Of a stretch of DNA of 32,814 bases, positions 22,976-30,053 are shown one piece after another (the stretch's first letter is position 1; every line of letters starts with the position of its first letter). The notes beneath the pieces are model-generated. The model saw nothing but the letters and a program-made list of their open reading frames with translations, did no database searches and was not told the DNA's origin. The DNA is taken from the NCBI GenBank assembly GCA_020720045.1, contig DYPH01000067.1, positions 1 through 32,814 of the forward strand, in the 5' to 3' direction. The position numbers and the translations under genes were made by a program. The DNA is from Sorangium cellulosum. Its GTDB lineage: Bacteria > Myxococcota_A > Polyangia > Polyangiales > Polyangiaceae.

Positions 22976-23878
22976 TTACGGAGCGGCCGCGTCGTTCAGT
23001 GCTTCGATTCGGAGGATGCGCTCGACGCGGAGTTCCCGCCGCCCGAAGGTGGCGACGTCGTGGCAGAAGAGGCGGTCCTCGTGGAGCGAAAGAGGGACGA
23101 CCTGAAGGAGAATTTCCGGGCGGCGGCTGGGGCGGTAGGCGAGCTGGAGCGGCCGCTTTTCGGCGATCGCGGCGACGCACTGGGCGACGATCGCCTCCCG
23201 CAAGGGGCGATCGGGGGGGCCGCTGTTTGTGCCGTCCCCCACGGGGACGCCGGCGCGAATCGCCTGCAATTCTCGAGCATTCGCCGGCGAGAGCGCGACG
23301 AGCAGCCGCTCAAAGAGAGCGCGCGTCGTGAGGACGTCGGCCTCCGCGCGATGGGAGCGCCCCGGATCGATGCCGAGGGCGGCGGCAAGCTTGGAGAGGG
23401 CGTAGCTCGGCTGCGCAAAGGCGCGTCGCGCGAGAGTGACCGTGTCGAGCCAGTGGGAAACCTTGTAAGATCCAGCGATCTCCCCCGCGGCAGCGAGGCG
23501 CGCGTAGGAGGCGTCGAGGAAGGAGAGATCGACGCGCGCTCCGTGCGCAACAAAAACGGCGCCATCGAGCAGCTCCGTAAGAGCCCCGGCGACCGCGGAA
23601 AAAGGGGGTGCCCCGGCGAGCGCCTCAGCGTCTAGGCCGTGGTACTCGGCGCCGCCGCCGAGGTTCGCGTCTGGGAAAACCAGCGTCGAAAATGTCGTAA
23701 CTTCGGGGTTTTCCGTCCCCACACCGACGACGCGACTCGCGCAGATCTCGACGATCCGATCTTCCAGCGGGTGGAGACCGGTCATCTCAAGATCGACAAA
23801 GACAAACGGCGCCTCCGAAATAGGTGCATCCCACACAGAGTTCGGGGGCGGGGCGTCGGTCCGGCGACGGTGGTTCAT
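22976..23878 (-). CDS. DEDDh 3'-5' exonuclease with C-terminal WYL-like domain
   Basis: The N-terminal half (about 20-200) is a DnaQ-type DEDDh exonuclease: FVDLEMTGL (Asp29, Glu31), the second motif HGARVDLSFL (Asp117) and the third motif HRAEADVLTT (His176, Asp181). All metal and catalytic residues are present, so it should degrade single-stranded DNA or RNA 3' ends. About 224-296 resembles a WYL domain (AIAEKRPLQLAYRPS, then VVPLSLHEDRLF, ending RRELRVERILRIE), a ligand-sensing module usually found in transcription regulators. The start at 23878 lacks a good Shine-Dalgarno; a GTG at residue 15 is possible. Its neighbours are an unknown small protein and SbcCD. Confidence 0.87.
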   Translation of the reverse strand: MNHRRRTDAPPPNSVWDAPISEAPFVFVDLEMTGLHPLEDRIVEICASRVVGVGTENPEVTTFSTLVFPDANLGGGAEYHGLDAEALAGAPPFSAVAGALTELLDGAVFVAHGARVDLSFLDASYARLAAAGEIAGSYKVSHWLDTVTLARRAFAQPSYALSKLAAALGIDPGRSHRAEADVLTTRALFERLLVALSPANARELQAIRAGVPVGDGTNSGPPDRPLREAIVAQCVAAIAEKRPLQLAYRPSRRPEILLQVVPLSLHEDRLFCHDVATFGRRELRVERILRIEALNDAAAP

Positions 23879-23996: not shown

Positions 23997-25739
23997 TCAG
24001 TTCGTCACTTCAACGCGCAGAAGCTTCTTGCCGATAAACAGGTAGTCACCGTGGGACAAAGCCTGTTCGCCCTTGATCTTCACGTAGGTACCGTTGCGGG
24101 AGTTCAGATCGGTAAGCGTAAGCTTTCCGGCGACGTCCTCGACCTTGCAGTGGGAGGCGCTCATGTAGAGGTCTGCCGGGAAGTTGAGATCGCCCCCCTC
24201 GCGCCCGACCTGAAGCGCCGAACCGCGCGCACAAACGCCGATCCCGGGGAGGCCCCCCTGGAGGATTTGCGTGACCCGGAAGGCCATGTGGTGCTTGGGG
24301 CTTGAGTAGAAGTAGGTCCCGTCGGGGCCCGGCGTGTCGGTCGTCGCCGGGGCCGGTTCGACGCGGAAAAGCTGCTCGCCAGCGAGGAAAAGGTCCCCGG
24401 GTTCGACGTCGACGGTGCCGCGCACGCGGACGTAGACGCCATTGACCGAGCCTTCGTCGCGGACGACAAGCTGAGCATCTCGATAGAAAAGATTGGCGTG
24501 TCGCGGGGAGACGAACGGGTCGTCGGGGAACACCAGCTGGCCGGTGCGACCGACGATGTGCTGTTCCGCGTTGAGCTGGTAGCTCAGCCCCTCAACGCCT
24601 TCGCCACGAATGAGAATGATCTTCGCGCGCCCTGGCGTCTGCAAGGCACCAAAGAACTTCGTCCGCGCGCCGACAATTTCCGGGGGCACGACCGCGCCGC
24701 AACGACCACAGAACTTGTGAACGAGCGGGACCGGGGTCGAGCACGAGCGGCAAACGAAATGCTTGGCTTGCTCCATCTGTTCCTCCAAAGAAAGCGCTTC
24801 AAACGGGACGTTTGAGCGTGCTCCGGGCGCGCGGGCGGCCGGTACAGGGCGGGCGGCGCCAACACGCGGCTCCGAAGGGGAGTTGCGTGCGACGCCAGCA
24901 GCGACAAGGAAAGGGTTGGACGACGTACGAAGGTGCGTCGACGCGGGATCTTCGCGCGGATCGGGCCGCGAAGGGGAAAGTTTTTCTTCGCGAATTTGCC
25001 GCGGAAACGGCGTGCGCGAGGGGACCGGCGACTGGCGGCGAGGGCGCAGGCTCTCGCTGAGCTGAGCGCCAAGCGACCCGCGCTTCTCGGGAAACGGCGA
25101 CGTCGAACGAGGCGGCTGTTCGAGGGCCACCATCGGCGGCGGCTCCGTGCGAATCCGGGGCTCACTGGGGGGGTCGTTCCGCGGAATCACCGGGGCAACC
25201 GGTTTGATCGCCGGTGAGGGGGACGGGATCGGACGTCCGCTTCCCACCGAAATCGGCCGTGCAACCTGCTGAATTTCCTCGACGGGCGGCGATGGGCGGT
25301 CCCAAGGGGCGATGCCTCCGCCGGGCGCCTCGGAGACCAGGGTCGCCTCGGGACGGACTTGAATCGTCGGCTCATCCCGATCGAAGGGGTCGTCGGCGAG
25401 GGGGTCGTTGTCGGAAAACGGGAGCGCGATTTCCATCCCGATCGCGGCATCGGCGAGGAGCGGATGGTCGACGGCGACGGCGGTGTCGATCAGGGTTCGC
25501 GAGGGGACTTCCGAGAACGGCGACGACGGGGGCGGCTCGCTCGGCCCCTTCGGGGCGGCGAGCGGAATGGTCGGCGAGGGCTCCGGGACCGAAACTGGGG
25601 CACTTGCCGCCGCGGAGATCGCCCCCGAACGGGTTTCAGCGGCGAGCGACAAGTCGCTTCCGCAGTTCATGCACCGGTCGCTTCCCAACCCGTGGTGGGT
25701 TTCGCAACGGCCGCAGACGATTCCGACCTCGAGTCCCAT
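23997..25739 (-). CDS. Zinc-ribbon and double FHA-domain signalling protein
   Basis: The ATG at 25739 starts just before the first zinc ribbon (CGRC at 9-12, CMNC at 23-26); a GTG 21 bases upstream is an alternative. A Pro/Ser-rich disordered region (about 35-320) leads to a second zinc ribbon (CRSC...CGRC, about 328-350). Two FHA domains follow: one around 365-455 (VGRTGQL, SPRHANLF, SVNGVYV) and one around 485-580 (VGREGGDL, SASHCKV, NSRNGTYV). FHA domains bind phospho-Thr peptides, so the protein probably acts as an adaptor for Ser/Thr kinases; none is encoded here. It follows the signal-peptidase-like gene by about 30 bp on the same strand. Confidence 0.9.
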   Translation of the reverse strand: MGLEVGIVCGRCETHHGLGSDRCMNCGSDLSLAAETRSGAISAAASAPVSVPEPSPTIPLAAPKGPSEPPPSSPFSEVPSRTLIDTAVAVDHPLLADAAIGMEIALPFSDNDPLADDPFDRDEPTIQVRPEATLVSEAPGGGIAPWDRPSPPVEEIQQVARPISVGSGRPIPSPSPAIKPVAPVIPRNDPPSEPRIRTEPPPMVALEQPPRSTSPFPEKRGSLGAQLSESLRPRRQSPVPSRTPFPRQIREEKLSPSRPDPREDPASTHLRTSSNPFLVAAGVARNSPSEPRVGAARPVPAARAPGARSNVPFEALSLEEQMEQAKHFVCRSCSTPVPLVHKFCGRCGAVVPPEIVGARTKFFGALQTPGRAKIILIRGEGVEGLSYQLNAEQHIVGRTGQLVFPDDPFVSPRHANLFYRDAQLVVRDEGSVNGVYVRVRGTVDVEPGDLFLAGEQLFRVEPAPATTDTPGPDGTYFYSSPKHHMAFRVTQILQGGLPGIGVCARGSALQVGREGGDLNFPADLYMSASHCKVEDVAGKLTLTDLNSRNGTYVKIKGEQALSHGDYLFIGKKLLRVEVTN

Positions 25740-25769
25740 GGGCGCGCGTGACCCTACCACGACCCCGAT

Positions 25770-26399
25770 TCAGCGCACCGCCCAGATGCGGCTCTGATCA
25801 GGATCCGTTGTCCAAATCCGAAAGGCGATGACGGAGCAGCTCGCAGCGTCAAGCTGACCGTAGTCGCGACTGTCGACATGGGCGGAGCGATTGTCGCTGA
25901 CGATGGCGACCTTACCGGGCTCGACGGTCGCCTCCCAGCGCGGCTCGGTCCGAAGCTTGTCGACGAGGACCTCGGTGTCGCGATCGGACCCCTTGATCCG
26001 CTCGACTTCACAGGTAAAATCGCGGGTATCACCGCTCGTCGGGTCGAAGGCCTTTCGGCCGCGATCGCAGCCTCGCGCCGTGAGCACCACGTCCTCGTTC
26101 ACCCAGGCGTGCCCCTGCTCGACCGTGACATGGTCACCGGTAATTCCGAGGACGCGGCCGACGACAAACCGGCCTTTTGCTTGCGGATCCGGGCAACGGA
26201 CGATGTCGCGCCGGACGGGGCCGCCGTGACGCTTCAGCAGGAGGACATCCCCCGCCGAGAGGGATGGGGCGAAGGAGAGGCTCTGGGCGATGTCGTCGCT
26301 CGGAATCACGTAGAGATCAAAGATCGTTGCGTAGACGATCCCCGCGAGCGCACCAAGGAACGCGACGAGCCAAACGAGGCCTTTGACAAAGTTTTTCAT
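25770..26399 (-). CDS. Signal peptidase I-like protein lacking catalytic residues
   Basis: This 209-residue protein has one N-terminal membrane helix (about 5-25) and the S26 (LepB) fold motifs. Box B, normally PSGSMxPTL, reads PSDDIAQSL (33-41), so the nucleophilic Ser is Asp36. Box D, normally KR-x-x-G-x-P-G-D, reads GRVLGITGD (81-89), so the general-base Lys is Gly81. Box E is intact: SDNRSAHVDSRDYG (168-181). The fold is kept but the Ser/Lys dyad is gone, which predicts a non-cleaving pseudoenzyme that may bind signal peptides or act in regulation. It lies 38 bp after the histidine kinase and 30 bp before the FHA gene, all on the same strand. Confidence 0.87.
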   Translation of the reverse strand: MKNFVKGLVWLVAFLGALAGIVYATIFDLYVIPSDDIAQSLSFAPSLSAGDVLLLKRHGGPVRRDIVRCPDPQAKGRFVVGRVLGITGDHVTVEQGHAWVNEDVVLTARGCDRGRKAFDPTSGDTRDFTCEVERIKGSDRDTEVLVDKLRTEPRWEATVEPGKVAIVSDNRSAHVDSRDYGQLDAASCSVIAFRIWTTDPDQSRIWAVR

Positions 26400-26437: not shown

Positions 26438-27799
26438 CTAGCAGCTTCGCGGAAAACGGAGACGGACAACTGCACCTCCGCCTTCGCGGTTTTCCGCCTG
26501 GGCGGCACCGCCGTGGGCTTCCGCAATTCGTCGGACGAGGGCGAGGCCAAGTCCGCTGCCTTGCGTCGGATTTCGTGCGTCATCACCGCGAACAAACGGC
26601 GTGAAGAGCTTCGGGAGGAGTGCCTCCGCGAAGCCGTTTCCACGGTCGCAGACGGAAAGCGTCACGTCGGCGTCGGTGACCGCAATCACGACCTCCAGGA
26701 CATCGCTCCCGGGCGCGTGACGCCTCGAATTTTCCAGGAGATTGTGGAGTGCTCGGCCAACGAGGGGCCGGTCGAGCGCGAGAGTGACCTCCGTCTCTGG
26801 CGCGTCGAGTTCGACGATCGGCGGCATCTCCTCATCGGCGATCCGGTCGCGAACGAAAGCGACAAAAGCGGTCGGTTCGCGGCGGAGGTCCGAGAGCCCC
26901 ATCCGCGCGCTTGCGAGCAAATCTCCAAGGATAGCGTCGACGCGAACGAGCTCCTTTTCCGCGGAAGCGAGCGGACCGTCGGCGGCATGATTCGACGAAG
27001 ATGGCGAAGCGAGCTGCTCGCGGGCGACGGCGACGGCGACCTTTGCGCGGCCGAGCGGTGAGCGGAGTTCGTGGCTTACAGCGCCAAGCAATTCGCGCCC
27101 TTCGCGAACCTCATGGGCAATCCGTTCGGCCATGCGATCAAACGCGCCGGCGAGCGCTGCCGTCTCGGCCGACCCGGCATCGGCGGGGGCAATTCCGCTC
27201 CGCGACGAGAGATCGCCGGAGCCGAAACGGGCGGCCGCCTCGCCGATCTTCTCAAGCGGCGAAGCAATTTTTCGCGAAAGAAGCTGTGCAAATACAAGGA
27301 GTACCGCACCAAAGGAGACCATCGCTGGAAGCGGACCGAGGCCGAAGCGCTCCCCTTCCGGAAACCGAACGGCCCCGAGAAGCGTCGCGTCATCGAAGGG
27401 ATCCTCCGCACGCGCGTCCCTCGGCCGGAGAATCGGAACGTAGCCGTAGCCATCCCCCGGCAGGAGGATCGGCCCCTGACGCTCGGGCCCCGAGGAGAAC
27501 ATGCGCCGCCAGGCACGCTCCTCTTTGGCCGTGGGCGGACGGAACTCGAGCCCCTTTGGCAAGTCGCCCGCACCGACAAATTCAAAAGCAATCCCCGCTG
27601 TTTCCGTCGCTTCAGCCAGCACCGCCTTTCGGGCGGACTCATCGCCGCGACTGAGGCGCCACGAGAGCTTTCGCACCAGCGCACGGTTTGGCAGATCGGC
27701 ATGGTCCGTCGAAGAGAGCCGGTAGGCGACGACCCCGGCCGCCCCGGAGGCCACGCTCGCCGCGCAAAGCCAGGCGAAGAGCCGGGTGCGGAGCTTCAC
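26438..27799 (-). CDS. Sensor histidine kinase
   Basis: This 453-residue membrane kinase starts at a GTG overlapping the response-regulator stop. TM1 (about 7-27) and TM2 (about 157-175) enclose a periplasmic sensor region (about 28-156). A HAMP-like linker follows (about 175-230). The H-box is AVSHELRSPLGR (His243), the N-box LLENSRRHAP (about 354-363), G1 DRGNGF (385-390) and G2 GSGLGLAL (414-421). All catalytic motifs are intact, so it should autophosphorylate and pass the phosphate to the adjacent regulator. The sensor region shows no known ligand motif. Confidence 0.94.
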   Translation of the reverse strand: MKLRTRLFAWLCAASVASGAAGVVAYRLSSTDHADLPNRALVRKLSWRLSRGDESARKAVLAEATETAGIAFEFVGAGDLPKGLEFRPPTAKEERAWRRMFSSGPERQGPILLPGDGYGYVPILRPRDARAEDPFDDATLLGAVRFPEGERFGLGPLPAMVSFGAVLLVFAQLLSRKIASPLEKIGEAAARFGSGDLSSRSGIAPADAGSAETAALAGAFDRMAERIAHEVREGRELLGAVSHELRSPLGRAKVAVAVAREQLASPSSSNHAADGPLASAEKELVRVDAILGDLLASARMGLSDLRREPTAFVAFVRDRIADEEMPPIVELDAPETEVTLALDRPLVGRALHNLLENSRRHAPGSDVLEVVIAVTDADVTLSVCDRGNGFAEALLPKLFTPFVRGDDARNPTQGSGLGLALVRRIAEAHGGAAQAENREGGGAVVRLRFPRSC

Positions 27800-28491
27800 G
27801 AGGGGCGGGCAAGCAGGTAGCCAACGCCGCGAACCGTTCGCAAGAGCACAGGTTCCTTCGGGTCGTCTTCGATCTTCTGCCGGAGCTTCGATACGTGGAC
27901 ATCGAGCGCGCGATCGACGGACGGATCGTAGTTCGCGCCAGAACCGTAGAGTTCGCGGGCGAGCGTTTCGCGGGTCACCGGCTTGCCAGCGTGTTGGGCG
28001 AGCGCATGCAAGAGGCGGAATTCAAACGCGGTAAGCACAATCGTGACGCCGTTTTTTGCCGCGCGGAGCTCGGAAGCCTCAAGCGTGAGCGGGCCGACTT
28101 TGAGCGTCCCAGCGGGCCGATCGCCGCGGCGACGGAGGAGCGCCTGCATCCGGAGGAGGAGTTCCTTCGGGTGAAAGGGCTTGGCGAGGTAGTCGTCGGC
28201 ACCGCGTTCGAGCCCCTCGATGCGGTCGAGTTCGTCGCCACGCGCGGTGAGCATGATCACCGGAACGTCACTGGTTTTGCGGAGTTCCACGAGGGCGGCG
28301 AAGCCGTCCTGGCCGGGGAGCATCACGTCGAGGAGCACCAAGCCGGCGATGGGCGCCTCGAGGGCAGCGCCGATGCGCGTTCCGTTCGTGACGTTCCGAA
28401 GCGCGAAGCCATGTGGGGTCAAGTACTCGGAAAGAAGCGGAAAAAGCGCTTCATCGTCGTCAACTAGGAGCACCGGAATCGTAGCGGTCAT
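27796..28491 (-). CDS. OmpR-family response regulator
   Basis: I start at the ATG at 28491, just before the receiver domain; the frame extends upstream over another gene. The 231-residue protein has a receiver (acidic pair Asp11-Asp12, phospho-acceptor Asp55 in LVLLDVMLPG, Thr82, Lys104) and a winged-helix DNA-binding domain (about 128-228, LTAFEFRLL, then the VDRALDVHVSKLR recognition helix and VRGVGYLL). It should bind promoters on phosphorylation by the kinase next door. The start overlaps the upstream stop by 4 bp and its stop overlaps the kinase start, so translation is coupled on both sides. Confidence 0.95.
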   Translation of the reverse strand: MTATIPVLLVDDDEALFPLLSEYLTPHGFALRNVTNGTRIGAALEAPIAGLVLLDVMLPGQDGFAALVELRKTSDVPVIMLTARGDELDRIEGLERGADDYLAKPFHPKELLLRMQALLRRRGDRPAGTLKVGPLTLEASELRAAKNGVTIVLTAFEFRLLHALAQHAGKPVTRETLARELYGSGANYDPSVDRALDVHVSKLRQKIEDDPKEPVLLRTVRGVGYLLARPS

Positions 28492-29510
28492 CGGTCCCTC
28501 GCACGGAGCACGGCGGCAAGATGGTGGCGGGCCCGGAGCGCGTAGTCGCCGCCCGGGTTGAGTTCGGTATAGCGGAGAAGCGCCTCCGCGGAATGCTCGT
28601 AGTCGTGGGCACGGTAGAGCGCGACACCGAGCGCGTAGTCGACGGGATAGGAGGGGTCGTCGGCGCGTACATCGGCAATTTTGGCAGCTCGAAAACGCTC
28701 CGACGAAACCTGTAAATCCTCTTCCGCCTTCAATTTTTCCGCGGGCGTTGCCGCGATTTTCTTTGCCAGCGCCAGGCGAACCATCGACGCACTTTCCGCG
28801 TGCGGCGTGCGTAGGTTGAGGCGATGCAGGAGGAGGCGCTCGGCGCGCGTTTCCGCGTATTTGGCCGTCAGTGCGTTGGCCGCGTCTGGGCGACGTCCGG
28901 GAGAGAGCAGCGGCGCGAGCCCGGTTTCCGTGTTCCACATGCGCTTAAAAAGAACCGCAAGTTCGCGATCTTCTGGAATCACGTAGCGATGGTCAGCGGC
29001 CGCGGGGGCAAACCAGCCGAAGGACGTCAGTTTGCGAACAAGAGGGGCGGCGAGACGACGGAGCGGTTCGGAGACAACGCCCGTCTGCCGGAGTACGCGA
29101 ACTTCGCCGAGAAATTCCTGCAATTGAAGCGCCCGCAATGTGAGCATTGCTTCGAGACCCGCATCGGCCCCTTTGGCGTCCTGAATCCGTTTGATCTCGT
29201 CGGCGATGCCATCGACAGCGAGGTCAACCTCTCGAATGTTCGGCGTGTCGACGTCGAGTTGAACGTGGAGCGCCGCGAGCGCCGATCCCACGGCGCGGAC
29301 GTCGGCATCGAGCCCCTTCGCCGCCTTCCCGGCGAGCGCGGCGTCGGCAGCAGCGACCGCGTCCAACTCGCGACGGTCGACAGGCGGCAGCGGGACGTCG
29401 TCGGGGGGTGTCCCGCGGGGGACAAGGAGCAGAAAAAGCAGCGAAGCGACCGTGAGAGGAACCAGCGCGAGCACCGGAGACTCCCGGCGCGCTCCCGAAA
29501 ATAGGCCCAT
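28488..29510 (-). CDS. Membrane-anchored helical/TPR-like protein at the head of the two-component operon
   Basis: The start at 29510 puts a single membrane segment (about 12-30) right at the N-terminus; no Shine-Dalgarno is evident and longer readings reach 29591. The 340-residue protein is otherwise soluble and helical, with an Ala/Leu/Arg/Glu-rich body and a C-terminal TPR-like pair (YALGVALYRAHDYEHSAEAL, then a YALRARHHLAAVL segment). It has no enzymatic motif I recognise. Its stop overlaps the response regulator start by 4 bp, so it may supply a signal-sensing or scaffolding part of the two-component pathway. That link is inference from coupling. Confidence 0.75.
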   Translation of the reverse strand: MGLFSGARRESPVLALVPLTVASLLFLLLVPRGTPPDDVPLPPVDRRELDAVAAADAALAGKAAKGLDADVRAVGSALAALHVQLDVDTPNIREVDLAVDGIADEIKRIQDAKGADAGLEAMLTLRALQLQEFLGEVRVLRQTGVVSEPLRRLAAPLVRKLTSFGWFAPAAADHRYVIPEDRELAVLFKRMWNTETGLAPLLSPGRRPDAANALTAKYAETRAERLLLHRLNLRTPHAESASMVRLALAKKIAATPAEKLKAEEDLQVSSERFRAAKIADVRADDPSYPVDYALGVALYRAHDYEHSAEALLRYTELNPGGDYALRARHHLAAVLRARDR

Positions 29511-29738
29511 TTTGCCAGTCTTTCGGTCGCTACTCCCCGCCGAAGCGCTGTTTCCGATCCGCAATTTCATCAGCGACCATGGTACCATCAAAGGTTGCGA
29601 TGCGTCCGTCAGTGCGCAGCGCAGGAACGCTTGCCGGCCTTCAAGCCCAAGCTTCCCCGCAGCAGGGCGCCAGGATGTGGCTCTGGCTGAGGTTTGCCTC
29701 GTCCCTCTCTACCCGCCAAGCCACGGAGCCTCCGAAAC

Positions 29739-30053
29739 GTGCAAGAGCAACGTCGTTACCAGCGCGCCCCCCTTCACGCGAACATCACCGTCACCCACGA
29801 TAGCCAAGCGATCGTCGGGACGAGCATGGACATTTCCGTCGGCGGAATGTTCATCCAGCTCGAAGAGGCGATCCCCTTCGGCGCGGAAATTCAGATCACG
29901 ATGCCGTCGCCGATCGACGCGCAGGCCCTTCTGACGATGCCGGCCAAGGTCCGCTGGACGCGCGCCGGCGGCATGGGCATCCAGTTTGGGCTGCTCGGAG
30001 CCCTGGAAACCCACGCGATCGTTGAATTTTTGCGAGGAAAGATCGGGACCTGA
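29739..30053 (+). CDS. PilZ-domain protein
   Basis: The protein is essentially one PilZ domain: RRYQRAPLH with the RxxxR loop at about 5-9, then the D-x-S-x-x-G motif in SMDISVGGMF (about 29-38), then a beta barrel ending in a helix. PilZ domains with both motifs bind cyclic di-GMP, so this is a likely c-di-GMP effector acting on motility or the envelope. I chose the GTG at 29739 (104 residues, GGAG upstream); a TTG at 29694 would add 15 residues. It is monocistronic, divergent from the unknown operon gene and convergent with the FecR gene (15 bp gap). Confidence 0.88.
   Translation: MQEQRRYQRAPLHANITVTHDSQAIVGTSMDISVGGMFIQLEEAIPFGAEIQITMPSPIDAQALLTMPAKVRWTRAGGMGIQFGLLGALETHAIVEFLRGKIGT

What the first reader, a model, noticed from the sequence alone, without database searches (positions are those of the whole stretch)
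25770..26399. Signal peptidase I pseudoenzyme: both catalytic residues replaced
The protein keeps the S26 fold motifs (box B position, box D, intact box E SDNRSAHVDSR) but has Asp at the nucleophile (PSDDI for PSGSM) and Gly at the general-base Lys (GRVLG for KRVVG). Losing both dyad residues while keeping box E argues for a retained non-catalytic role, such as binding signal peptides or sensing secretion load. The neighbours are a two-component system and an FHA adaptor.
Basis: partly seen in the sequence, partly recalled or inferred. Interest (0 to 1): 0.6.

Follow-up and report, generated by a model that had tools for sequence, protein, structure and literature searches.

The report
Conserved inactive signal-peptidase relatives in myxobacteria

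Summary
The 209-residue protein at 25770-26399 (-) is a real S26 (signal peptidase I) homologue under strong purifying selection (dN/dS 0.02 against the congener). Half of the claim holds. The general-base Lys is Gly81, and it is Gly, Ala or Leu in all 125 members examined of its clade. The other half is a register error. The nucleophile box is S42-F-A-P-S-L-S-A-G-D, so Ser is kept (87 of 91 family orthologues). "PSDDI" lies in an insertion of about six residues just upstream. A box-B profile prefers the S42 register by 26-32 bits, and alignment to S. aureus SpsB agrees. Box E is only partly intact (Gly272->Ser, Ser278->His).

The larger result is a clade spread over several families of the window's class that lacks the Lys everywhere. 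Its nucleophile drifts (Ser, Ala, Gly), and it has an invariant Cys69/Cys188 pair found in none of the 24 other S26 proteins compared; Cys111/Cys130 is a second pair in the two closest families. Active LepB coexists. NCBI's model would name the window protein "signal peptidase I". Most likely it is a membrane-anchored, non-catalytic, peptide-binding protein, working like S. pyogenes SipA but of separate origin. The downstream FHA gene is conserved, but the partnership is not obligate. Function is untested.

The parts
25770..26399 (-). S26 pseudo-signal-peptidase, 209 aa
   Evidence: Pfam PF10502 51.3 bits; TIGR02227 56.9 bits against cut-off 47; 91 full-length family orthologues aligned
26322..26390 (-). 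N-terminal hydrophobic helix, residues 4-26 (VKGLVWLVAFLGALAGIVYATIF): probable membrane anchor, N-inside by the positive-inside rule
   Evidence: sequence; helix 2-26 is the only confident part of the single-sequence model
26277..26300 (-).
   Evidence: alignments; D36 in 81 of 91 of f1 and 4 of 5 of f6, gap in every other group
26247..26276 (-). True box B, S42-F-A-P-S-L-S-A-G-D51; Ser42 = LepB Ser90
26193..26195 (-). Cys69, clade-defining, probably disulphide-bonded to Cys188
   Evidence: 125 of 125 in the clade, 0 of 24 outside
26154..26159 (-). Box D Gly81-Arg82 in place of Lys145-Arg146
   Evidence: no Lys in 125 of 125 clade members
26067..26069 (-). Cys111, second pair, families f1 and f6 only
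   Evidence: 90 of 91 in f1, 5 of 5 in f6
26010..26012 (-). Cys130, second pair, families f1 and f6 only
   Evidence: 89 of 91 in f1, 5 of 5 in f6
25866..25898 (-). Box E, S168-DNRSAHVDS-R178: Gly272->Ser168 and Ser278->His174, remainder kept
   Evidence: structural meaning of Gly272 and Ser278 from PMC4049620
25836..25838 (-). Cys188, clade-defining
   Evidence: 125 of 125 in the clade, 0 of 24 outside
23997..25760 (-). Downstream gene: zinc-ribbon protein with two FHA domains, 587 aa; start 9 nt after the S26 stop codon
   Evidence: Pfam; adjacent on the same strand in 73 of 86 family loci with usable flank
26438..27799 (-). Upstream sensor histidine kinase, 38 nt from the S26 start; probably the same transcript
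   Evidence: Pfam; adjacent in only 20 of 87 family loci
27796..28938 (-). Response regulator (the ORF as listed probably starts too early: its Response_reg domain begins at residue 156)
   Evidence: Pfam

Best explanation
It is a pseudo-signal-peptidase. One N-terminal helix anchors it in the inner membrane, with its S26 beta-domain in the periplasm. Lys, the general base that activates the Ser nucleophile in signal peptidase I, was lost in the ancestor of a clade now spread over several families of this class, so the protein should not hydrolyse peptides by the S26 mechanism. The fold is kept, stapled by Cys69-Cys188 and in the window's family also by Cys111-Cys130. The most likely role is to bind an extended peptide stretch (a signal-peptide C-region, or an exported client emerging from the translocon) in the old substrate groove, as a chaperone, holder or adaptor, comparable to S. 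pyogenes SipA. Shown here: homology, register, Lys loss, Ser retention, Cys co-occurrence, constraint on the sequence. Inferred: no activity, disulphides, topology, peptide binding, client.
For: Lys absent in 125 of 125 clade members (Gly 105, Ala 18, Leu 2) against 28 of 28 Lys in LepB controls. In the window's family Gly272->Ser in 90 of 91 and Ser278->His/Pro/Tyr; the SipA paper reports that any side chain at Gly272 would clash with Lys145 and that Ser278 stabilises it (PMC4049620), so the lysine site has been remodelled. The nucleophile is not conserved over the clade: Ser in f1 and f20, Ala in f6, Gly or Ala in most of f2, f5 and f7. No His or Lys column in the family reaches 75%, so no replacement base is evident. 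Purifying selection: dN/dS 0.02 for the window pair, mostly 0.06-0.37 elsewhere. Strong S26 matches, led by LepB, exist in 105 of 106 family genomes, so processing does not depend on this protein. The CC clade is a group with support 0.91 in a FastTree run. Precedent: SipA has Gly at the Lys site, shows no peptidase activity and is essential for pilus polymerisation (PMC4049620).
Against: No experiment. No usable structure: the single-sequence model has mean pLDDT 41, so the groove could not be inspected. Ser42 is kept in 87 of 91 orthologues although the mean column identity is only about 48%, which could point to residual chemistry. LepB Val132, an S3-pocket residue from memory, is Arg68 in most of f1 (63 of 90), so the groove may not bind a standard signal peptide. 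Some dN/dS values in one genus reach 0.6-0.8, at low dS.
Confidence: 0.6

Rival explanations
1. It is a regulatory or decoy subunit of the active LepB: a pseudo-paralogue that pairs with LepB or competes for its substrates and so tunes processing.
For: Active LepB co-occurs in the family; regulation of the active relative is a common role of pseudoproteases such as iRhoms (general reviews found).
Against: No linkage to lepB in any locus examined; bacterial SPase I is not known to need a partner (general knowledge).
Confidence: 0.15
2. It is still a peptidase: Ser42 is activated by an unconventional base such as Asp36 of the inserted loop or His174, on a narrow set of substrates.
For: Ser42 in 87 of 91 and Asp36 in 81 of 91 family members.
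Against: Ser42 is Ala in four family members and Ala or Gly in most sister families; Asp36 lies in an insertion absent from all but f1 and f6 and is Thr in one f1 group; His174 is Pro in 35 of 91. The insertion sits beside the residue that helps form the oxyanion hole in LepB (Ser88, from memory).
Confidence: 0.1
3. It is the periplasmic sensing part of a phosphorylation circuit with the two-component system and the FHA protein, as the first reader proposed (sensing secretion load).
For: Compact response regulator - kinase - S26 - FHA gene order on one strand in the window; FHA adjacent in 73 of 86 family loci.
Against: The kinase is adjacent in only 20 of 87 loci. The FHA protein occurs in 277 of 289 class genomes, including family genomes without the S26 protein (G010, G054, G081), and is not adjacent in other families. 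The S26 domain and the FHA domains are predicted on opposite sides of the membrane.
Confidence: 0.1
4. It is a decaying or mis-called copy of signal peptidase without function.
For: Two divergent members in genomes G002 and G003 have an eroded box B (L261, L260).
Against: dN/dS 0.02 for the window pair; no internal stop codon in any listed family match; 13 positions invariant across 46 diverse members.
Confidence: 0.03

Closest known systems
Streptococcus pyogenes SipA/LepA (PDB 4N31, 4K8W; PMC4049620)
   Same: S26 fold with Gly at the Lys145 site; a side chain at the Gly272 position (Asn in SipA, Ser here); Ser278 replaced; no catalytic dyad; kept by selection.
   Different: SipA has Asp at the Ser90 position, whereas Ser42 is kept here. 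SipA is Gram-positive and sits in a pilus locus; no sortase or pilin gene was recognised beside this gene. The profile of this family matches active SpsB (E 9.7e-12) better than SipA (1.9e-8), and the tree places the clade among Myxococcota S26 proteins, so separate origin is likely. The Cys pairs were not examined in SipA.
Staphylococcus aureus SpsA
   Same: A catalytically dead S26 paralogue beside an active enzyme (SpsB); described as lacking two conserved catalytic residues and dispensable (PMC12445088).
   Different: No role known; not compared residue by residue here.
Type I signal peptidase LepB / SpsB (family S26A, TIGR02227)
   Same: Membrane anchor, boxes B to E, nucleophile Ser, Arg146, most of box E.
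   Different: No general-base Lys; Gly272 and Ser278 changed; insertion before the nucleophile; Cys pairs.

Membership tests
Type I signal peptidase (S26A) | S26 domain with boxes B to E behind an N-terminal membrane helix | tested here: met
   PF10502 and TIGR02227 above their cut-offs; hydrophobic helix at residues 4-26
Type I signal peptidase (S26A) | Nucleophile Ser in S-M-x-P-T-L-x-x-G-D | tested here: met
   Ser42 by HMM alignment and profile test
Type I signal peptidase (S26A) | General-base Lys in box D | tested here: not met
   Gly81; no Lys in 125 of 125 clade members
Type I signal peptidase (S26A) | Gly272 and Ser278 of box E, around the Lys | tested here: not met
   Ser168 and His174
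Type I signal peptidase (S26A) | Cleavage of preproteins | not testable with these tools
   needs purified protein
ER/archaeal-type (S26B) Ser-His signal peptidase | His in place of the box D Lys | tested here: not met
   Gly81
SipA-like pilus pseudo-peptidase | Asp at the Ser90 position | tested here: not met
   Ser42; Asp36 is six residues upstream
SipA-like pilus pseudo-peptidase | Gly at the Lys145 position and a side chain at Gly272 | tested here: met
   Gly81, Ser168
SipA-like pilus pseudo-peptidase | Located in a sortase/pilin locus | tested here: not met
   neighbours are a two-component system, FHA, PilZ and RNase_T proteins; conserved neighbour clusters included no recognised sortase or pilin
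Cys-stapled pseudo-S26 clade (defined here) | Cys69 and Cys188 with no box D Lys | tested here: met
   125 of 125 inside, 0 of 24 outside; FastTree support 0.91

The most novel reading that the evidence does not exclude
The clade is a new class of periplasmic peptide-binding protein made from signal peptidase: present through several families of one bacterial class for a long time, disulphide-stapled, and with a dedicated client or a redox-gated groove. In the window's family the kept Ser42 and the DDP loop may still support an altered chemistry, such as slow acylation or autoprocessing without Lys.
Probability: 0.12. Interest if true: 0.75.

Novelty: new variant of a known kind. Interest (0 to 1): 0.45.

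Why it matters
Dead signal peptidases are known mainly from single Gram-positive proteins (SipA, SpsA). A clade spread over several families of one Gram-negative class, with the Lys lost throughout and the nucleophile drifting afterwards, gives a natural series for asking what the signal-peptidase fold does without catalysis. It also matters for annotation: the window protein passes NCBI's equivalog cut-off for 'signal peptidase I' (56.9 against 47 bits), and 31 of 46 family members match that model at E <= 1e-12, so databases will call many of these active enzymes.

Tried and rejected
Asp36 as the nucleophile position: rejected by profile score and HMM alignment. Structure: the single-sequence AlphaFold2 model is unusable (pLDDT 41), so no fold search was run. 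Functional coupling to FHA: adjacency is real in one family, but it is not obligate. Papers: nothing found on pseudo-signal-peptidases in Myxococcota, which is not proof that none exist, since only open-licence papers are held.

Full report
Observation. The ORF is as described: 209 aa, ATG at 26399, stop at 25770-25772, minus strand. It matches Peptidase_S26 and signal peptidase I models above their curated cut-offs. The genome holds two other S26 proteins: a LepB with Ser and Lys (L001), and a second one that also has Ser and Lys (L002).

Register of the nucleophile. What follows Ser90 in signal peptidases is M-x-P-T-L-x-x-G-D, and this continuation occurs six residues further on: S42-F-A-P-S-L-S-A-G-D51. 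The family profile aligned to solved signal peptidases puts the box-B serine of SpsB (eSMDPTLKDG) opposite S42, as does the single sequence for the 4nv4 and 4me8 chains. A 14-column profile from 28 LepBs of the same family, all with Ser and Lys, chooses S42 in 88 of 91 orthologues; with the nucleophile column removed it still chooses S42 in 81 of 91. The Asp36 register is worse by medians of 32 and 26 bits. Ser42 is Ser in 87 of 91 and Ala in four (L037, L039, L044, L068). Asp36 belongs to an insertion of about six residues between P33 and box B, present only in families f1 and f6. So the claim of two replaced dyad residues is wrong for Ser and right for Lys. This rests on sequence; no usable model was obtained.

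Loss of the lysine. Position 81 is Gly or Ala in all 91 family members, while Arg82 beside it is invariant. The surroundings of Lys145 changed too: Gly272 is Ser in 90 of 91, and Ser278 is His, Pro or Tyr. The SipA structure paper states that any side chain at Gly272 would clash with Lys145 and that Ser278 stabilises it (PMC4049620). No Lys or His column in the family is conserved well enough to replace the base.

Distribution. In the window's family 97 of 108 genomes have a match. Of these I aligned 90 full-length orthologues, one per genome, besides the window; a few further matches are fragments, degenerate copies or cross-matches to other S26 proteins. Searching the class and phylum with alignments gave related proteins in families f2, f5, f6, f7, f8, f10, f11 and f20. 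All 34 of these that I aligned lack Lys and have Cys69 and Cys188, for 125 of 125 in total; none of 24 other S26 proteins from the phylum has either Cys. The CC group has FastTree support 0.91 and lies inside a wider set of mostly Lys-less Myxococcota S26 proteins (support 0.97). Deep branches are weakly supported, and single origin of the Lys loss is the simplest reading, not a proof. Within the clade the nucleophile is Ser (f1, f20), Ala (f6), or mostly Gly or Ala (f2, f5, f7). A residue that drifts like this is not under selection for catalysis in those families. Cys111 and Cys130 appear together, in f1 and f6 only. Joint presence or absence of each pair suggests two disulphides; this is inference.

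Constraint. Window against its congener: dN 0.004, dS 0.216, ratio 0.02. Other close pairs are mostly 0.06-0.37, with one genus up to 0.8 at low dS.

Neighbourhood. In the window the order on the minus strand is response regulator, histidine kinase, S26, FHA protein, with gaps of 38 and 9 nt around the S26 gene. Over the family the FHA protein (two zinc ribbons, two FHA domains, C-terminal part 58-79% identical) is adjacent downstream in 73 of 86 loci with usable flank; the kinase is adjacent upstream in 20 of 87. The FHA protein is in 277 of 289 class genomes, including family genomes with no S26 orthologue (G010, G054, G081), and is not next to the S26 gene in other families. In other families the downstream gene is often a YbjN-domain protein with an apparent signal peptide (18 of 34) and thiG/thiE-like genes lie upstream (15 of 34). 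Linkage therefore changes between families and gives no firm functional partner.

Mechanism. Best reading (0.6): a membrane-anchored, non-catalytic S26 domain in the periplasm that binds an extended peptide in the old substrate groove, as chaperone, holder or adaptor. SipA shows that this kind of protein can exist: no activity, dyad replaced, groove kept, essential for pilus polymerisation (PMC4049620). Rivals are LepB regulation, residual unusual catalysis through Ser42, and signalling with the kinase and FHA protein.

Known or new. Catalytically dead S26 proteins are known (SipA, SpsA). This clade differs in its Gram-negative distribution over several families of one class, kept Ser in two families, insertion before box B in two families, and Cys pairs. 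I rate it a new variant of a known kind, interest 0.45.

Noticed in passing
window 23997-25760 (-): Protein with zinc ribbons and two FHA domains whose C-terminal part is 58-79% identical across the family and which is found in 277 of 289 genomes of the class: an apparently core gene without a specific family name in the libraries searched.
   Followed up: partly
L263 (G013:C1:1033523-1034062, -): S26 protein with Ser kept and His at the box D Lys position (SMCPTL ... FLHRVV), like the Ser-His arrangement of ER-type signal peptidases.
   Followed up: no
LEPB_L132 in L132 (G082:C1:11378465-11378959, -): LepB-like paralogue that keeps Lys but has Ala at the nucleophile (SGAMIPTL), in a genome that lacks the CC-clade protein.
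   Followed up: no
L197, L198, L200, L201, L249, L251-L257, L259: Further S26 proteins of other Myxococcota families with no box D Lys (Arg, Gly, Ala, Val or Gln instead) and no Cys pair; one (L197) does have Asp at the nucleophile position.
   Followed up: partly
L260 and L261 (genomes G003 and G002): Divergent copies in two genomes of the window's family with Cys69/Cys188 kept and box B eroded.
   Followed up: partly
L169-L195, L202, L203: In other families a YbjN-domain protein with an apparent signal peptide lies downstream of the S26 gene (18 of 34 loci) and thiG/thiE-like genes lie upstream (15 of 34).
   Followed up: partly
window 22976-23878 (-) and 29694-30053 (+): An RNase_T exonuclease with a weak WYL match, and a PilZ-domain protein.
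   Followed up: no
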